64,000 nucleotides of DNA from Sphingopyxis soli (lineage in GTDB: Bacteria > Pseudomonadota > Alphaproteobacteria > Sphingomonadales > Sphingomonadaceae): the NCBI RefSeq assembly GCF_018682675.1, contig NZ_JAFMTR010000042.1:1-64000 (forward strand), read 5' to 3'. Position 1 is the stretch's first letter; the number at the start of each line of letters is the position of its first letter. Position numbers and translations under genes: made by a program. This document shows, piece after piece, positions 4,431 through 59,786 of the stretch. The notes below the pieces were generated by a model that worked only from the letters and a program-made list of their open reading frames with translations, did no database searches and was not told where the DNA came from.

Positions 4431-5612
4431 TCAGGCTTGGGCGGTCTTCCAGTCGCGTTTGATCTTCTTGGCGAGGCTCCATTTGTGGACCTCGGTCGGG
4501 CCGTCGTAGATGCGGAAGGCGCGGACCTCGCGGAACACCTGTTCGACGATCGTCTTGTCGGTCACGCCGGTTCCGCCCATGACCTGGACGCAGCGGTCGG
4601 CGATGCGCATCAGCGCCTCCGACACCGCGACCTTGGCCATCGAGCTTTCGACGGTACCGAGCGATCCGGTGTCGAGGACGGCCGCGCACCAGTCGATCAT
4701 CAGTTCGGCCTGTTTCAGATCGATCATATTCTCGGCGAGCATGAAGCCGACGCCCTCATGCTCGATCAGCGGCTTGCCGAAGGCCTCGCGGCGATTGGCA
4801 TAGTCGGTCGCGATTTCGTGTGCGCGGATGCACGCGCCCAGCCAGCGCATGCAGTGCGAAAGGCGTGCGGGGGAGAGACGAACCTGTGCATAGCGGAAGC
4901 CTTCGCCCGCCTGGCCGAGCATCTGGTCCGCGGGAATGCGCAGATTGTCGATCGTCAGCGTCGCATGGCCGCCGGGCATCGAGCTGTCGATCGTGTTGGG
5001 CACCTCGTCGATGCGAATCGCGGGGTCGGGCAGGTCGACCAGGAACATGCATGCCCCCTGTTCGGCCTTCGCCATGATGATGCCGACCCGTGCGCCCTGT
5101 GCGCCGGTGATGAAGGTCTTGCGACCGCTCACGACCCAGTGATTGCCGTCGGGGTGGCAGGTCGTTTTCATCATCGACGGGTCGGAGCCCGCGCCGCCCT
5201 CGTCGGCGGGTTCGGTCATGAAAAAGGCCGACCGCACCCGGCCGTCGACCATCGGCTTGAGGAAGCGCTCCTTGAGTTCGGGGCTTCCTTCCTTGCCGAG
5301 CAGATACATATTGCCCTCGTCGGGCGCCATCGTGTTGCAGGCGAGCGGGCCGAGCGGCGACAGGCCGCTTTTGATCAGCACCACGGCGGTCTCGCGCTGG
5401 TTGAGGTGGCTGCCGTCTTGCAGGATGTGCGGCGTCAGCACGCCCGCGGCGCGTGCCTGCTCGCGCATTTCCATGACCAGCTCGTCGGTCGGCGCGCCAT
5501 GATGGTCGCGGCGGGGATCGCGTTCATAGGGGATGACGGTCTCCCGGACGAAAGTCTCGACCTTTGCGGCAATCGCCAGCGCCCGATCCGATATGCCCTC
5601 GTTCGTCGTCAT
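4431..5612 (-). CDS. Acyl-CoA dehydrogenase, ACAD10/11-like (393 aa)
   Basis: Third acyl-CoA dehydrogenase of the region, of the ACAD10/ACAD11-like branch: FFMTEPADEGGAGSDPS in the beta domain, VMGGTGVTDKTIVEQVFRE, and RIYDGPTEVHKWSLAK carrying the probable catalytic Glu at the C-terminus. ATG at 5612 is chosen because GGAGGG lies 7-8 bases upstream; a GTG five codons earlier would bury that ribosome site. It is transcribed leftward as a single gene ending just before the promoter of the next operon, and divergently from the flavoprotein gene at 5731. Site B lies between the two starts, so both are probably co-regulated. Confidence 0.9.
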   Translation of the reverse strand: MTTNEGISDRALAIAAKVETFVRETVIPYERDPRRDHHGAPTDELVMEMREQARAAGVLTPHILQDGSHLNQRETAVVLIKSGLSPLGPLACNTMAPDEGNMYLLGKEGSPELKERFLKPMVDGRVRSAFFMTEPADEGGAGSDPSMMKTTCHPDGNHWVVSGRKTFITGAQGARVGIIMAKAEQGACMFLVDLPDPAIRIDEVPNTIDSSMPGGHATLTIDNLRIPADQMLGQAGEGFRYAQVRLSPARLSHCMRWLGACIRAHEIATDYANRREAFGKPLIEHEGVGFMLAENMIDLKQAELMIDWCAAVLDTGSLGTVESSMAKVAVSEALMRIADRCVQVMGGTGVTDKTIVEQVFREVRAFRIYDGPTEVHKWSLAKKIKRDWKTAQA

Positions 5613-5653
5613 CCCGATTCCCTCCACGCTTCTGCAAATCGCTCAACCCGACG

Positions 5654-5669
5654 TTGACGTAAGCGTCAA
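5654..5669. promoter_or_regulatory. Palindromic operator-like site B in divergent promoter
   Basis: 16-bp palindrome TTGACGTAAGCGTCAA between the divergent genes starting at 5612 (-) and 5731 (+). It shares the TTGACGT half-site with site A and with the site before the MerR gene at 30270. Predicted MerR-family operator. Confidence 0.6.
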
Positions 5670-5730
5670 GTTAATTCATGTGCAAAGACGACGGTGCCGT
5701 AAGGGCAATAAAATCAGGGAAGGATGGGGC

Positions 5731-6711
5731 ATGGCTTTCAAGACGCGTATCACCGAGATGCTGGGCATCGAACATCCGATCGTTCAGGGCGGGATGCAGA
5801 GCGTCGGCTATGCCGAGCTTGCGAGTGCGGTGTCGAACGCGGGCGGCCTCGGCATCCTGACCGCGCTGACCCAGCCGTCTCCCGACGCCCTGCGCGCCGA
5901 GATCGAGCGCTGCCGCGCGATGACCGGCAAGCCCTTCGGCGTGAACATGACGGTGTTTCCGACGATCAACGCGCCCGATTACAAAGCCTATGCGCAGGCG
6001 ATCATCGACGGCGGGGTGAAGATCGTCGAAACCGCGGGAACGCAGGCGGTGCGGGAGATCTGGGAGATGCTGAAGCCCCATGGCGTCACCATTCTCCACA
6101 AATGCACGGCGGTCCGTCACGCCCTGTCGGCGGAGAAGGCGGGGTGCGATATCATCTCGATCGACGGTTTCGAATGCGCCGGCCATCCGGGCGAGGACGA
6201 TATTCCCGGCCTGATCCTGATCCCGGCCGCCGCCGACAAGGTCAAGATTCCGATGCTCGCCTCGGGCGGCTTCGGCGACGGGCGCGGCCTCGTCGCCGCA
6301 CTCAGTCTCGGCGCCGAGGGCATCAATATGGGCACGCGTTTCTGCGCGACCGTCGAGGCGCCGATCCACGACAATGTGAAACAGGCCTATATCGAGAATG
6401 ACGAGCGCGGCAGCTTCCTGATCTTTCGCAACTTCAAGAACACCGCGCGCGTCGGTCGCAGCCCGGTCAGCGAAGAGGTCGCGCGCCGTCTCGCCAATCC
6501 CGATGCGCAGTTCAGCGACGTGCAGGAGCTGGTGTCGGGCGCCGCGGGGCGCGAACTGCTCCAGACCGGCGACCTGTCGAAGGGCGTGTTCTGGGCCGGG
6601 ATGGTGCAGGGGCTGATCCACGATATCCCGACCTGTCAGCAACTGATCGACCGGATCATCGGCGACGCCGAAGCGATCATCGACCGGCGGCTTGCCGGTT
6701 TCAGGAACTGA
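5731..6711 (+). CDS. Nitronate monooxygenase / FabK-like flavin oxidoreductase
   Basis: FMN-dependent TIM-barrel protein of the nitronate monooxygenase (2-nitropropane dioxygenase) family, 326 residues. Visible: IEHPIVQGGMQSVGYAELA at the N-terminus, NAGGLGILTA, GFECAGHPGEDD around the active-site histidine, and the phosphate-binding ASGGFGDGRG / GAEGINMGTRF segment. ATG at 5731 follows a purine-rich ribosome site (GGAAGGATGGGG). Members act as nitronate oxidases, as NADH:quinone reductases, or as enoyl reductases. They recur in lipid and steroid catabolic clusters without a settled role, so the reaction here is unknown. It heads a rightward transcript with the fusion protein downstream, controlled from the promoter carrying site B. 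Confidence 0.85.
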   Translation: MAFKTRITEMLGIEHPIVQGGMQSVGYAELASAVSNAGGLGILTALTQPSPDALRAEIERCRAMTGKPFGVNMTVFPTINAPDYKAYAQAIIDGGVKIVETAGTQAVREIWEMLKPHGVTILHKCTAVRHALSAEKAGCDIISIDGFECAGHPGEDDIPGLILIPAAADKVKIPMLASGGFGDGRGLVAALSLGAEGINMGTRFCATVEAPIHDNVKQAYIENDERGSFLIFRNFKNTARVGRSPVSEEVARRLANPDAQFSDVQELVSGAAGRELLQTGDLSKGVFWAGMVQGLIHDIPTCQQLIDRIIGDAEAIIDRRLAGFRN

Positions 6712-56871: not shown

Positions 56872-58023
56872 ATGGTCGACGTCTTCATTTCCTACTCGCG
56901 CGACAACAAGGCGCGCGTCGCACAGATCGCGCAGGCAGTTTCCGTCGCCGGCTATGACGTGTGGTGGGACGCCGAATTGCCGCCTCACCGGTCCTACGGC
57001 GATGTCATCACCGAAAAGATCGGCAGCGCGAAGGCCGCGATCGTCGTCTGGTCGCACCAATCGGCGCAGTCCGAATGGGTCCGCGCCGAAGCCGACGTCG
57101 CACGCAACCAGAAGAAGCTGGTGCAGACGGCGATCGACGATGTCATGCCGCCGCTTCCCTTCAACCAGATCCAGTTTGCCGAGCTTGCCGACTGGAATGG
57201 CGAGCCCGATCATCGCGGCTGGCGCAAGGTGCTGATGAGCCTTGAGGAACTATGCGGGCGGGAAGCCGCGCTGGCTGGCGCGGCGCCCGAGCCGCCGAGG
57301 CCGGCCCCGAACAACAGGCAGGCGCAACCCGGCGCTCGCAAGCCGTCCATCCTGCCGTGGGCACTGCTCGGCGTGGCGGTGATCGCGGTCGCGCTGCTTG
57401 CCTGGAAACTGCTCCGGCCAACATCGGAACCCGTCGCGGCTTCGGCCCCGACCGAGACAGCGGCGTCTGCCGAAAATGTCGAGGCCGCCCCCGCGTCGGC
57501 AACATCAAACCCGGCCGAAGCCTTCACACTCGCCGCGGTGATCGACGATCCCGACGGCTTCACCAATATCCGCGCGGGGCAGGGGACGCATACGCCGATT
57601 GTCGGCAAGGTACTCGAGGGCGAGAAGTTTTTGACCTACAAGCAGCCCGGGCAGTGGTGGCGCGTGCGCAAGGCCGACGGCACGACGGGATATATGTTCC
57701 ACAAATATATCCGACTGGTCGAAGGTGGGGTGGCGTCGGCATCCGAAGGCTATGAAGGGAAGCTGGATGGGCCAGTGGTTATCGCCGACTCCTCGACACG
57801 CGAGCTGACGCCTGCGGACGTTGCGCCGCTGACGAAGCAACAAGCCCGTCTGGCGCGGAACGAAATCTTTGCACGAAAGGGGCTTCGTTTCAAAGACCCC
57901 GAGCTACGGGAGGTCTTTGGTCGCTACGCCTGGTACAAGCCGACCTCCGATGTGGTCGAACTGTCACCGATCGAGAAGGCCAATGTCGCGCTGCTGAAAT
58001 CGGTCGAAGACGCGGCGCAATGA
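56872..58023 (+). CDS. TIR domain - transmembrane - SH3-like - YARHG protein
   Basis: 383 residues in four parts. Residues 1-130 form a TIR domain: FISYSRDN, the box-2-like region VWWDAELPPHRSYGDVI, and SEWVRAE with Glu73 at the position of the NAD-hydrolysing glutamate of SARM1-type TIRs (WVxxE). Residues 159-180 are one transmembrane helix. Residues about 215-285 form a bacterial SH3-like domain (GFTNIRAGQGTHTPIVGKVL; WWRVRKADGTTGYMFHKYI). Residues about 310-378 are a YARHG domain (LTKQQARLARNEIFARKGLR; FGRYAWYKP). SH3b and YARHG domains usually act outside the cytoplasm, so the likely topology is cytoplasmic TIR with a periplasmic sensor. GGGAGGC precedes the ATG at 56872. A 4-bp overlap couples it to the cyclase gene. 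Confidence 0.85.
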   Translation: MVDVFISYSRDNKARVAQIAQAVSVAGYDVWWDAELPPHRSYGDVITEKIGSAKAAIVVWSHQSAQSEWVRAEADVARNQKKLVQTAIDDVMPPLPFNQIQFAELADWNGEPDHRGWRKVLMSLEELCGREAALAGAAPEPPRPAPNNRQAQPGARKPSILPWALLGVAVIAVALLAWKLLRPTSEPVAASAPTETAASAENVEAAPASATSNPAEAFTLAAVIDDPDGFTNIRAGQGTHTPIVGKVLEGEKFLTYKQPGQWWRVRKADGTTGYMFHKYIRLVEGGVASASEGYEGKLDGPVVIADSSTRELTPADVAPLTKQQARLARNEIFARKGLRFKDPELREVFGRYAWYKPTSDVVELSPIEKANVALLKSVEDAAQ

Positions 58024-59786
58024 CCGACCGCGCCGCTGTCGAGGCGGAAGTCGCGTACCGCCTTGGGCAGGGCGATGCGCTTAGCGCCTTCGATTGCGCG
58101 GCTGCAGCGCGCCGCGAAGGCGTCGATAGTCCGCGCCTCCGTTACCTGATGGTCCGCGCGCTCGCGGCGTCGGGCGACAGCCTCGGCGCGATGCATCTTT
58201 ACGAGCAACTCGACCTGGCGGCGACGGGCGACGTCGACAGTCTCGCGCTCGCCGGGCGCATCTGGAAGGATGAGGCGTTCGATCATGAGGGCGCCGAACG
58301 GGCGTTGTTTCTTCGCAAGGCCGCAGCGGCTTACGAGAATGCGTTCAAGACGTCGGGCGCCGACTTTCCGGCGATCAATGCCGCAAGCCTTTATGCGATG
58401 CTCGGCGAACGCGATCGCGCGGCGGCGCTCGCGGGTCCGATCGCGGCCAATGGCGCGTCCGACAATTATTGGGATCAGGCGACGCTCGTCGAGGCGCTGT
58501 TGCTGCTCGGCCGCGGCGAGGAAGCGCTCGCCCATGCCGCCGCCGCCGCGCAGGCGACTGCGCGAGCTGGGGATCGCGCTTCGACCTGCCGCCAGATCGC
58601 GCGGCTCGCGGCAAGCGGTGCGATCGACGCCGCCCGCGCGGCGGCAATCGTCGCCTTGCTGCGCCCGCCGCCCGTCGGCGTCTATTGCGGACGTATGTTC
58701 CGCGCGGGCGGCGAAGGCGAGGCGCGTGCCGCGCGCGCAATCGCCGAAGCGCTCGATACGCAGCCGCTCTCTGCGCTGATCGGCCCGCTCGCGTGCGGGG
58801 CCGACATATTGTTCGCCGAAGCGGCGCTCGATCGCGGTATCGACCTCACCATCGTGCTCCCCTTTGCAGAGGATGATTTCATCGCCCAATCGGTGCAGTC
58901 GGGGGGCGAGGCGTGGGTGCCGCGCTATCTTCGCTGCCGCCAGAGAGCAGCGATGGTCCATTTCGCGAGCAACGCGCGCTATGTCAGCGACGATTGCCAG
59001 TTCATCCTCGGCTCGCACACTGCGATGGGTCTCACGAAGCTCCGCGCGCGCGAACTCGAAACCGAGGCGATCCAGCTCGCCGTGGTCGATCCCGAATTCG
59101 CCGCGCGATCGGGGGCCGAGATTGCCGGGACCAACGCCGATATCGCGCTGTGGCGGGGCAGGGGCGAGCGGACGCTGGCCATCCCGGTCGGCAATCTTGA
59201 CCGCAATCTCGACTTTCCTCCGGCCCCCAAACCACCCGAAGGGACGCAGCGCGGCCTTTACGCGATTCTCTTTGCGGACTTCGCCGGCTTCTCGAAACTC
59301 GGCGAGGCCGAGCTTCCGGTCTTCGCGGCCGAGGTGATGGGCGGGATCGGGCGAATCCTCGACGATTTCGGCGACGCGGTACTGTTCCGCAACACCTGGG
59401 GCGACGCGGTTTACGCGGTAATCGACAATCCCGCGACCGCCGCGCGAATCGCGCTCGCGATGCAGGAACGGCTCGACGTCCTGCCGCCCGGCCTCGGCCT
59501 CGAAGGGCACAAGGCCGGGATGCGGACCGGCATCCACTTCGGCCCGATCTATCGCGGCGTCGATCCCGTCGTCGGCAACGAGCTGTGGTACGGAACCGAA
59601 GTCACGCGCACCGCGCGGATCGAGCCCGTCACGCTGGTCGGGCAGGTCTATTGCACCCAGCCGCTCGCGGCGATGCTGGCGCTTGAAAATGCGCGCGATT
59701 TCGACTGCGACTATGTCGGCAAGGTCCGCCTGGCCAAGGATTATGGCGAGCTGGCGCTCTATCGCCTCTCGCGCCGCTCAGCTTGA
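58020..59786 (+). CDS. TPR-like - SLOG-like - class III nucleotidyl cyclase protein
   Basis: 588 residues. Residues 1-210 are alanine-rich helical repeats of TPR or TRAFs-binding type. Residues about 215-400 form a Rossmann-like domain with GVYCGRMF, IGPLACGADILFAEAALDRG and LTIVLPFAEDDF, which I judge SLOG-like. Residues about 408-585 are a class III cyclase domain: metal Asp420 in LFADFAGFSK, second metal Asp462 in TWGDAVYAV, and the transition-state Arg533 in VTRTARIE. The usual base-recognition Lys is replaced by Asn458, its partner Asp by about Leu522, and the catalytic Asn by Thr529, so the nucleotide used may not be ATP or activity may be lost. Cytoplasmic; no transmembrane helix. Coupled to the TIR gene by ATGA overlap. 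Confidence 0.8.
   Translation: MTDRAAVEAEVAYRLGQGDALSAFDCAAAARREGVDSPRLRYLMVRALAASGDSLGAMHLYEQLDLAATGDVDSLALAGRIWKDEAFDHEGAERALFLRKAAAAYENAFKTSGADFPAINAASLYAMLGERDRAAALAGPIAANGASDNYWDQATLVEALLLLGRGEEALAHAAAAAQATARAGDRASTCRQIARLAASGAIDAARAAAIVALLRPPPVGVYCGRMFRAGGEGEARAARAIAEALDTQPLSALIGPLACGADILFAEAALDRGIDLTIVLPFAEDDFIAQSVQSGGEAWVPRYLRCRQRAAMVHFASNARYVSDDCQFILGSHTAMGLTKLRARELETEAIQLAVVDPEFAARSGAEIAGTNADIALWRGRGERTLAIPVGNLDRNLDFPPAPKPPEGTQRGLYAILFADFAGFSKLGEAELPVFAAEVMGGIGRILDDFGDAVLFRNTWGDAVYAVIDNPATAARIALAMQERLDVLPPGLGLEGHKAGMRTGIHFGPIYRGVDPVVGNELWYGTEVTRTARIEPVTLVGQVYCTQPLAAMLALENARDFDCDYVGKVRLAKDYGELALYRLSRRSA

What the first reader, a model, noticed from the sequence alone, without database searches (positions are those of the whole stretch)
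56872..59786. Two-gene TIR / SLOG-like / nucleotidyl-cyclase module, a candidate undescribed signalling or defence system
Seen: two genes with a 4-bp overlap encode TIR-TM-SH3-YARHG and TPR-SLOG-cyclase proteins. Established: Thoeris pairs a TIR enzyme with a SLOG sensor of its product; Pycsar pairs a class III-like cyclase with a TIR or membrane effector. Inference: here TIR, SLOG and cyclase parts meet in one operon, so a TIR-made signal could be read by the SLOG domain to switch the cyclase, or the cyclase product could drive the TIR. The TIR protein has no cyclic-nucleotide-binding domain and there is no Sir2, so neither known system fits.
Basis: partly seen in the sequence, partly recalled or inferred. 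Interest (0 to 1): 0.88.

Follow-up and report, generated by a model that had tools for sequence, protein, structure and literature searches.

The report
Membrane TIR receptor wired to cyclase
Two overlapping bacterial genes form a widespread signalling pair in which a membrane-anchored immune-type (TIR) enzyme that may sense the cell wall appears to switch an enzyme that makes cyclic nucleotides, joining two signalling chemistries usually treated as separate.

Summary
Gene 1 (56872-58023) is TIR, a transmembrane segment, SH3_3 and YARHG. Gene 2 (58020-59786, 4-bp overlap) is TPR-S, a SLOG-fold domain and a class III cyclase. The SLOG call, invisible to sequence search, is confirmed by fold (YpsA, Z 17.5). 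The two genes go together: 21 of 60 genus genomes have both, none has gene 1 or a full-length gene 2 alone, and they sit at one fixed site. In an even draw of the order, a TIR gene lies within 1.6 kb of 20 of 25 newly fetched full-length relatives from other genera; outside the order the link is weaker (2 of 8 in the class). TIR sensor parts swap (SH3, YARHG, LprI, FHA, TPR, WD40) while gene 2 stays, so the TIR looks like the input. Where a CRP regulator adjoins gene 2, its cyclic-nucleotide cassette is kept in 26 of 26 loci with an intact cyclase and lost in 8 of 8 without one, in two lineages: the cyclase most likely makes a cNMP. Best reading: envelope, TIR, TPR-S/SLOG, cyclase, cNMP. Not Thoeris or Pycsar. 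Evidence for defence is weak; the window's cNMP receptor is unknown.

The parts
56872..58023 (+). Gene 1: TIR-TM-SH3_3-YARHG protein, 383 aa
   Evidence: ORF; Pfam
56881..57210 (+). TIR domain (residues 4-113), conserved Glu73 at 57088-57090
   Evidence: TIR_2 E 7e-19; Glu in 58 of 58; PDB TIR protein 3h16 E 3e-5
57346..57402 (+). Predicted transmembrane segment SILPWALLGVAVIAVALLA (residues 159-177)
   Evidence: Kyte-Doolittle mean 2.4 over 19 residues
57562..57711 (+). SH3_3 domain (residues 231-280), inferred periplasmic
   Evidence: Pfam E 2.6e-8
57775..58008 (+). YARHG domain (residues 302-379), inferred periplasmic, proposed peptidoglycan binder
   Evidence: Pfam E 3.1e-20; PMC3355149 (listing and start of abstract)
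58020..58023 (+). 4-bp ATGA overlap of the two genes
   Evidence: the same 4-bp overlap in several genus members (coordinates)
58020..59786 (+). Gene 2: TPR-S / SLOG / class III cyclase protein, 588 aa
58092..58391 (+). TPR-S domain (residues 25-124)
   Evidence: Pfam PF20308 47.4 bits, cut-off 27.6; family profile matches the ASK1/MAP3K5 entry 5ulm at E 0.0021
58674..59186 (+). SLOG-fold domain (about residues 219-389)
   Evidence: YpsA Z 17.5, DprA 12.2, LOG 10-11, TRPM2 9.2
59247..59774 (+). Class III nucleotide cyclase domain (residues 410-585); D420 59277-59279, D462 59403-59405, R533 59616-59618
   Evidence: VIA Z 22 to class III cyclases; D420, D462, W460, R533 in 47 of 47, N458 in 41 of 47

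Best explanation
The pair is a transmembrane relay. Gene 1 is a receptor: SH3_3 and YARHG outside the membrane watch the cell envelope (probably peptidoglycan), and the TIR inside is the switchable part, most likely an NAD+-using enzyme (E73). Its product, or its activated form, is read by the TPR-S and SLOG domains of gene 2, which switches on the attached class III cyclase. The cyclase then makes a 3',5'-cyclic mononucleotide as the output. In related loci the output is read by an adjacent CRP-type transcription factor; in the window's genus the receptor is elsewhere and unknown. Shown here: anatomy, folds, conserved catalytic residues, pairing in the genus, and co-loss of cyclase and CRP cassette in relatives. 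Inferred: NADase activity, that SLOG or TPR-S binds the TIR product, the direction of flow in the window, membrane topology, and what the envelope part senses.
For: Pairing: both genes in the same 21 of 60 genus genomes; a short remnant of both in G023. Wider link: TIR within 1.6 kb in 20 of 25 newly fetched full-length loci outside the genus from an even draw of the order, 13 of 16 genera. In the similarity-ranked set, 52 TIR ORFs in 158 kb within 1 kb of gene 2, against 9 in 741 kb at 2-8 kb; the TIR lies up- or downstream on either strand, so adjacency survived rearrangement. Direction: partner TIRs carry swapped sensory parts: SH3+YARHG, SH3, LprI, FHA, TPR, WD40. Output: in 34 distinct loci with a CRP within 300 bp, the phosphate cassette (Glu and Arg) is present in 26 of 26 with an intact cyclase and 0 of 8 without; the tree needs two changes. 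Catalysis: TIR Glu 58 of 58; D420, D462, R533 47 of 47. SLOG fold, with TRPM2 among the matches. TPR-S relates to the TPR of ASK1.
Against: No biochemical data. In even draws outside the order the TIR link is weak: 2 of 8 near-full-length loci in the class draw (one of the two a weak match, E 4e-11, in a 1432-aa ORF) and 2 of 4 newly fetched loci in the phylum draw. In the ranked set 22 of 83 loci have no TIR within 5 kb. The window has no CRP at the locus and no clear orthologue of the linked CRPs (29-33% identity at best), so the output step there is by analogy. The cyclase lacks the usual purine-selecting Lys/Glu and the transition-state Asn (N458 and T529 instead). G017 has a distant cyclase-less gene-2 relative with a different TIR, so gene 2 also works, or is kept, without a cyclase. 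Topology is inferred. The role of the small pNTSase1-like gene of some relatives is unknown.
Confidence: 0.5

Rival explanations
1. Scaffold relay without a small-molecule step. The TIR is an assembly domain that binds the TPR-S/SLOG protein directly, as in the ASK signalosome, and clustering switches the cyclase.
For: The family profile matches the ASK1 TPR region and gene 2 matches MAP3K_TRAF_bd; translational coupling by a 4-bp overlap.
Against: TIR Glu is invariant in 58 of 58, which binding alone would not obviously require; a SLOG domain, a fold that binds nucleotide ligands in known cases, is present.
Confidence: 0.22
2. Pycsar-like order: the cyclase is the sensor and its cNMP activates the TIR as a cell-killing NADase.
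For: A class III-like cyclase beside a membrane TIR resembles Pycsar in parts list; a weak profile match to PycC 7r65 (E 0.019).
Against: No cNMP-binding domain in gene 1 nor in the lists for 16 partner TIRs scanned (for L085 only the best 25 of 56 families were shown); sensory domains sit on the TIR side; 7 of 8 CRP-linked loci without a working cyclase keep a TIR; linked CRP cassettes track the cyclase; no PADLOC match for gene 2.
Confidence: 0.1
3. The cyclase domain is catalytically inactive and serves as a nucleotide sensor or dimerisation module; the real output is the TIR.
For: Three of the usual class III positions differ (N458, position 522, T529).
Against: Both metal Asp and the catalytic Arg are in 47 of 47; loss of the cyclase goes with loss of the CRP cassette; the cyclase domain is well conserved in the genus (median 88.3% identity against 77.6% for RsmB).
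Confidence: 0.12
4. It is an anti-phage abortive-infection system, whatever the order of steps (a claim about role, not exclusive of the others).
For: TIR, TPR-S and SLOG are common in conflict systems (general knowledge); the pair is patchy (21 of 60); gene 1's TIR has weak PADLOC matches (SAVED_TIR 32.9 bits, ThsB 24.1 bits); some loci have nSTAND1-WD40 or TIR-WD40 partners.
Against: Fixed site between DUF885 and rsmB, with loss including a remnant; TIR 91.3% and cyclase 88.3% median identity in the genus; no match in phage records or in the viral-contig scan.
Confidence: 0.25

Closest known systems
Thoeris (ThsB TIR + ThsA)
   Same: A TIR partner and a SLOG domain in adjacent genes; a TIR product read by SLOG is the leading scheme here too.
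   Different: No SIR2 or macro domain found; SLOG sits between TPR-S and a cyclase, so the output would be a second messenger rather than NAD depletion.
Pycsar (PycC + PycTIR/PycTM)
   Same: Class III-like cyclase next to a TIR or membrane protein; non-purine residues at the base-selecting positions (compared with passages of PMC11224242).
   Different: The TIR lacks a cNMP-binding domain; the cyclase carries TPR-S and SLOG; the linked reader in relatives is a CRP transcription factor, with a Thr-Thr pair at the base-contact place in 20 of the 26 with a cassette, which suggests cAMP rather than cUMP.
TPR-S systems and the ASK (MAP3K5) signalosome
   Same: TIR plus TPR-S; the family profile hits the ASK1 structure 5ulm at E 0.0021.
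   Different: ASK ends in a protein kinase (general knowledge); here the output domain is a nucleotide cyclase with a SLOG domain before it.
Class III adenylate cyclase - CRP circuits
   Same: Cyclase with an adjacent cNMP-binding regulator in relatives.
   Different: Linked to a TIR partner; the purine-selecting Lys/Glu is replaced by N458.

Membership tests
TIR domain (Pfam TIR_2) | Family score over cut-off and catalytic Glu | tested here: met
   68.9 bits against 28; E73 in 58 of 58
TPR-S (PF20308) | Family score over cut-off | tested here: met
   47.4 bits against 27.6
SLOG fold superfamily | SLOG/DprA/LOG-type Rossmannoid fold | tested here: met
   YpsA Z 17.5 over 153 residues, DprA 12.2, LOG 10-11
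SLOG fold superfamily | Detectable sequence similarity to a known SLOG family | tested here: not met
   No SLOG-type Pfam family among the matches of 47 members; no PDB sequence match
Class III nucleotide cyclase | Fold and two metal-binding Asp | tested here: met
   Z 22; D420 and D462 in 47 of 47
Class III nucleotide cyclase | Purine-selecting Lys/Glu and transition-state Asn | tested here: not met
   Position 458: Asn 41, Asp 4, Glu 1, Ala 1 of 47; position 529: Ser 21, Thr 15, Ala 7, Val 2, Ile 1, Asn 1
Thoeris | ThsA-type effector (SLOG with SIR2, or macro-domain effector) | tested here: not met
   Gene 2 has a cyclase instead; no SIR2 or macro match; no PADLOC match for gene 2
Thoeris | ThsB-type TIR | tested here: inconclusive
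   Pfam ThsB_TIR 19 bits, below its cut-off 21.2; PADLOC ThsB models match weakly (best 24.1 bits, E 5e-6)
Pycsar | Effector with a cyclic-nucleotide-binding domain | tested here: not met
   None in gene 1
Pycsar | PycC cyclase producing cCMP or cUMP | not testable with these tools
   Weak profile match to PycC 7r65, E 0.019, only; the product needs biochemistry
Anti-phage defence system | Reduces phage plating | not testable with these tools
   Indirect evidence only

The most novel reading that the evidence does not exclude
A TIR-to-cyclic-nucleotide relay: a family of exchangeable TIR receptors (cell-wall, lysozyme-inhibitor-like, phosphoprotein, TPR or WD40 sensors) feeds an NAD-derived signal into one conserved TPR-S/SLOG-gated cyclase with a non-canonical base pocket, turning NAD signalling into cNMP signalling. 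It would be a bacterial counterpart of receptor-to-second-messenger cascades and a relative of the ASK1 TIR/TPR input.
Probability: 0.4. Interest if true: 0.87.

Novelty: new variant of a known kind. Interest (0 to 1): 0.72.

Why it matters
TIR enzymes and nucleotide cyclases are known as separate sources of second messengers. A conserved pair in which one appears to switch the other would show a two-step relay in bacteria, give TPR-S (shared with animal ASK kinases) a testable ligand, and suggest that some bacterial TIRs act in envelope signalling rather than suicide. The co-loss of the cyclase and the CRP cassette gives an unusually direct genomic prediction of the output, testable by one mass-spectrometry assay.

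Tried and rejected
Mobile-element reading: tblastn of gene 2 found no match in phage records and only partial matches under 60% identity in 8 plasmid records; the viral-contig scan gave 88 pattern matches but no relative. Rejected as the main story.

Window-genome CRP partner: the loci of the 10 cNMP-binding matches of the genome were compared with the linked CRPs; the best are 29% identical over 185 residues and 33% over 113, so none can be named. DUF885 as part of the unit: rejected, since G002 keeps the pair without it and G023 keeps it beside the remnant; in many pair-less genomes the MFS-rsmB interval has its size.

Simple vertical inheritance: distance matrices agree only moderately (gene 2 parts against flanks r 0.31-0.59, flanks among themselves 0.43-0.78), so some recombination of the locus is possible. 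The whole-model fold searches were filled by cyclases, so the middle domain was folded alone. The TPR part alone against PDB sequences gave only designed repeats. Of three small linked proteins scanned, L060's matched pNTSase1 just over its cut-off (25.2 against 25) and those of L062 and L074 had no match; the count of 16 pNTSase1-like genes rests on a profile of my own. Alignment A4 was a poorly trimmed trial and was not used.

Literature: no held paper has TPR-S, TIR and NAD together (0 papers), and none of the 6 papers (three of TPR-S, TIR, SLOG, cyclase) has TPR-S; searches added nothing that joins them (listings were cut at 20 of 43 and 25 of 28). Most subscription papers, including the one I recall as most relevant (doi 10.1128/JB.00365-20, not held), could not be read, so absence from print is not claimed.

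Rows dropped before counts: one search used 83 loci (80 plus L058, L062, L063); the tree left out L058, L062, L063 and the three loci with ORFs outside 480-760 aa. A3 (47 rows) holds the window and 46 of the 80 loci. In one search, 4 of the 38 rows were dropped as duplicate genomes (L071, L195, L198, L205); two of the 34 kept (L076, L077) are near-copies, and L187 is a very distant member. A regular expression missed 3 intact cassettes (L073, L075, L081), which I corrected on the alignment. Of 47 order-draw hits 41 were fetched; the 6 left (G747, G823, G890, G917, G999, G1002) are partial members of one genus. Of the 29 full-length members outside the window's genus, 25 are counted; the other 4 (G063, G071, G075, G097) were fetched earlier and each has an upstream TIR-like ORF. 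The order draw shares several genomes with the ranked set, so the two are not independent.
Full report
Check. Gene 1 is TIR, a hydrophobic segment from residue 159, SH3_3 and YARHG. Gene 2 is TPR-S, a domain without sequence match, and a cyclase. AlphaFold gave gene 2 mean pLDDT 95.4 from a 47-row alignment, and the middle part alone 95.5. The middle part aligns best to YpsA (Z 17.5, 153 residues, 2.4 A), then DprA (12.2), LOG proteins (10 to 11) and TRPM2 (9.2): a SLOG fold. The cyclase part aligns to class III cyclases at Z 22. The family profile also meets human ASK1 (5ulm, E 0.0021), in keeping with the Pfam TPR-S and MAP3K_TRAF_bd matches.

Place in the genome. The pair lies between a DUF885 gene and rsmB. 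Among 60 genus genomes, gene 2 proper is found in 21 counting the window (in G027 cut by a contig end) and gene 1 in the same 21 (in G012 split by a contig end, in G055 in pieces). Of the other 39, G023 holds a short remnant of both at the same site, G017 a distant gene-2 relative (38% identity) without cyclase beside a different TIR, and a few have only weak matches to other cyclases. The interval from the flanking MFS gene to rsmB, measurable in 52 genomes, is 4.8-6.2 kb in 16 of 17 with the pair (3.1 kb in G002, which lacks DUF885) and 24-3069 bp in 34 of 35 without it; in G017 the two genes are far apart. Median pairwise identity in the genus is 91.3% for the TIR, 88.3% for the cyclase, 80.0% for SLOG, 75.9% for the TPR part and 73.4% for the SH3-YARHG part, against 77.6% for RsmB, 84.5% for SapC, 87.5% for the MFS protein and 90.3% for DUF885. 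The pair thus behaves like a conserved, sometimes lost, chromosomal gene pair rather than a mobile island.

Relatives. Of 83 loci examined, 61 have a TIR gene within 5 kb, 30 a CRP-like gene and 16 a pNTSase1-like gene. TIR ORFs are 52 in 158 kb within 1 kb of gene 2 and 9 in 741 kb at 2-8 kb. That set was ranked by similarity, so I added even draws. Order: 47 of 397 genomes have a member, in 20 of 81 genera; among 25 newly fetched full-length loci outside the window's genus, 20 have a TIR within 1.6 kb, in 13 of 16 genera. Class: 18 of 241 genomes counting the window; 17 loci were fetched, and of 8 that cover the profile from position 6 or before to 546, 2 have a TIR nearby, one of them weak, and 3 (one genus) an adjacent CRP. 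Phylum: 10 of 397; of 4 newly fetched loci, 2 have a TIR. The TIR link is therefore strong in this order and partial beyond it. On the family tree the TIR is found up- and downstream, on either strand, in Pseudomonadota, Actinomycetota and Verrucomicrobiota.

Who is input. The partner TIR proteins scanned keep the TIR but change the rest: SH3+YARHG in the window and in L211, SH3 in L219, LprI in L194, FHA in L208, TPR in L112, L116 and L210, WD40 in L085, and no other Pfam domain in L087, L098, L193, L196 and L217. 35 of 57 neighbouring TIRs have a clear hydrophobic segment after the TIR. YARHG was described as extracellular and proposed to bind peptidoglycan (PMC3355149, listing and start of abstract). 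This is the pattern of exchangeable receptors on a constant transducer.

What is output. The cyclase keeps D420, D462 and R533 in 47 of 47, while the base-selecting position is Asn in 41 of 47 and W460 is invariant. These offsets (minus 4 and minus 2 from the second metal Asp) are where pyrimidine cyclases carry base-selecting residues of their own (PMC11224242, passages), so the substrate cannot be read off. In relatives a CRP-like gene with cNMP-binding and HTH domains adjoins gene 2. In 34 distinct loci with such a CRP within 300 bp, the phosphate cassette (GE and Arg) is intact in 26 of 26 beside an intact cyclase, and lost in all 8 where the cyclase domain is missing (7) or has lost its metal motifs (L212). 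The tree needs two changes, with one change in 4% of bootstrap trees; starred branches alone force only one. This ties the cyclase to production of a cNMP that CRP reads. A Thr-Thr at the base-contact place in 20 of the 26 suggests cAMP (numbering partly recalled). 7 of the 8 cyclase-less loci still have a TIR near TPR-S/SLOG, which places the TIR upstream of TPR-S/SLOG rather than downstream of the cyclase.

Mechanism. I commit to: envelope signal, gene 1 TIR, NAD-derived product or activated TIR, TPR-S/SLOG, cyclase, cNMP (0.5). A direct-contact version is the main rival (0.22). Thoeris and Pycsar membership fail on tested features; the workings resemble the first half of Thoeris joined to a cyclase-CRP circuit.

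Limits. No activity was measured; the window's receptor is unknown; topology is inferred; the link outside the order is partial; the 2020 paper that I recall as naming TPR-S could not be read, so priority for the general TIR/TPR-S idea should be assumed to lie there.

Noticed in passing
G000:C87 84660-94038 (outside the window): Three TIR_2 genes lie within 10 kb in the window's own genome, a possible conflict-gene cluster.
   Followed up: no
L064 (G023) about 5478-6147: Remnant of both genes at the same site between DUF885 and rsmB, showing loss of the pair.
   Followed up: partly
L104, L119, L122, L132, L141, L063, L188: TPR-S/SLOG proteins without a cyclase sit beside CRP proteins without the cNMP cassette; what the changed CRP now senses is open.
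   Followed up: partly
L060 5449-5982 and 16 of 83 loci: A small pNTSase1-like gene (PF20301, barely over its cut-off in L060) lies between TIR and gene 2 in many Maricaulis and Kordiimonas loci.
   Followed up: partly
L142 493-7581: Three TIR genes beside one gene-2 relative in an Opitutia genome.
   Followed up: no
Genus g29 (9 genomes; L218, L219, L220 fetched): Family members that begin near profile position 154-177, i.e. SLOG and cyclase without TPR-S; of three fetched, one has a TIR.
   Followed up: partly
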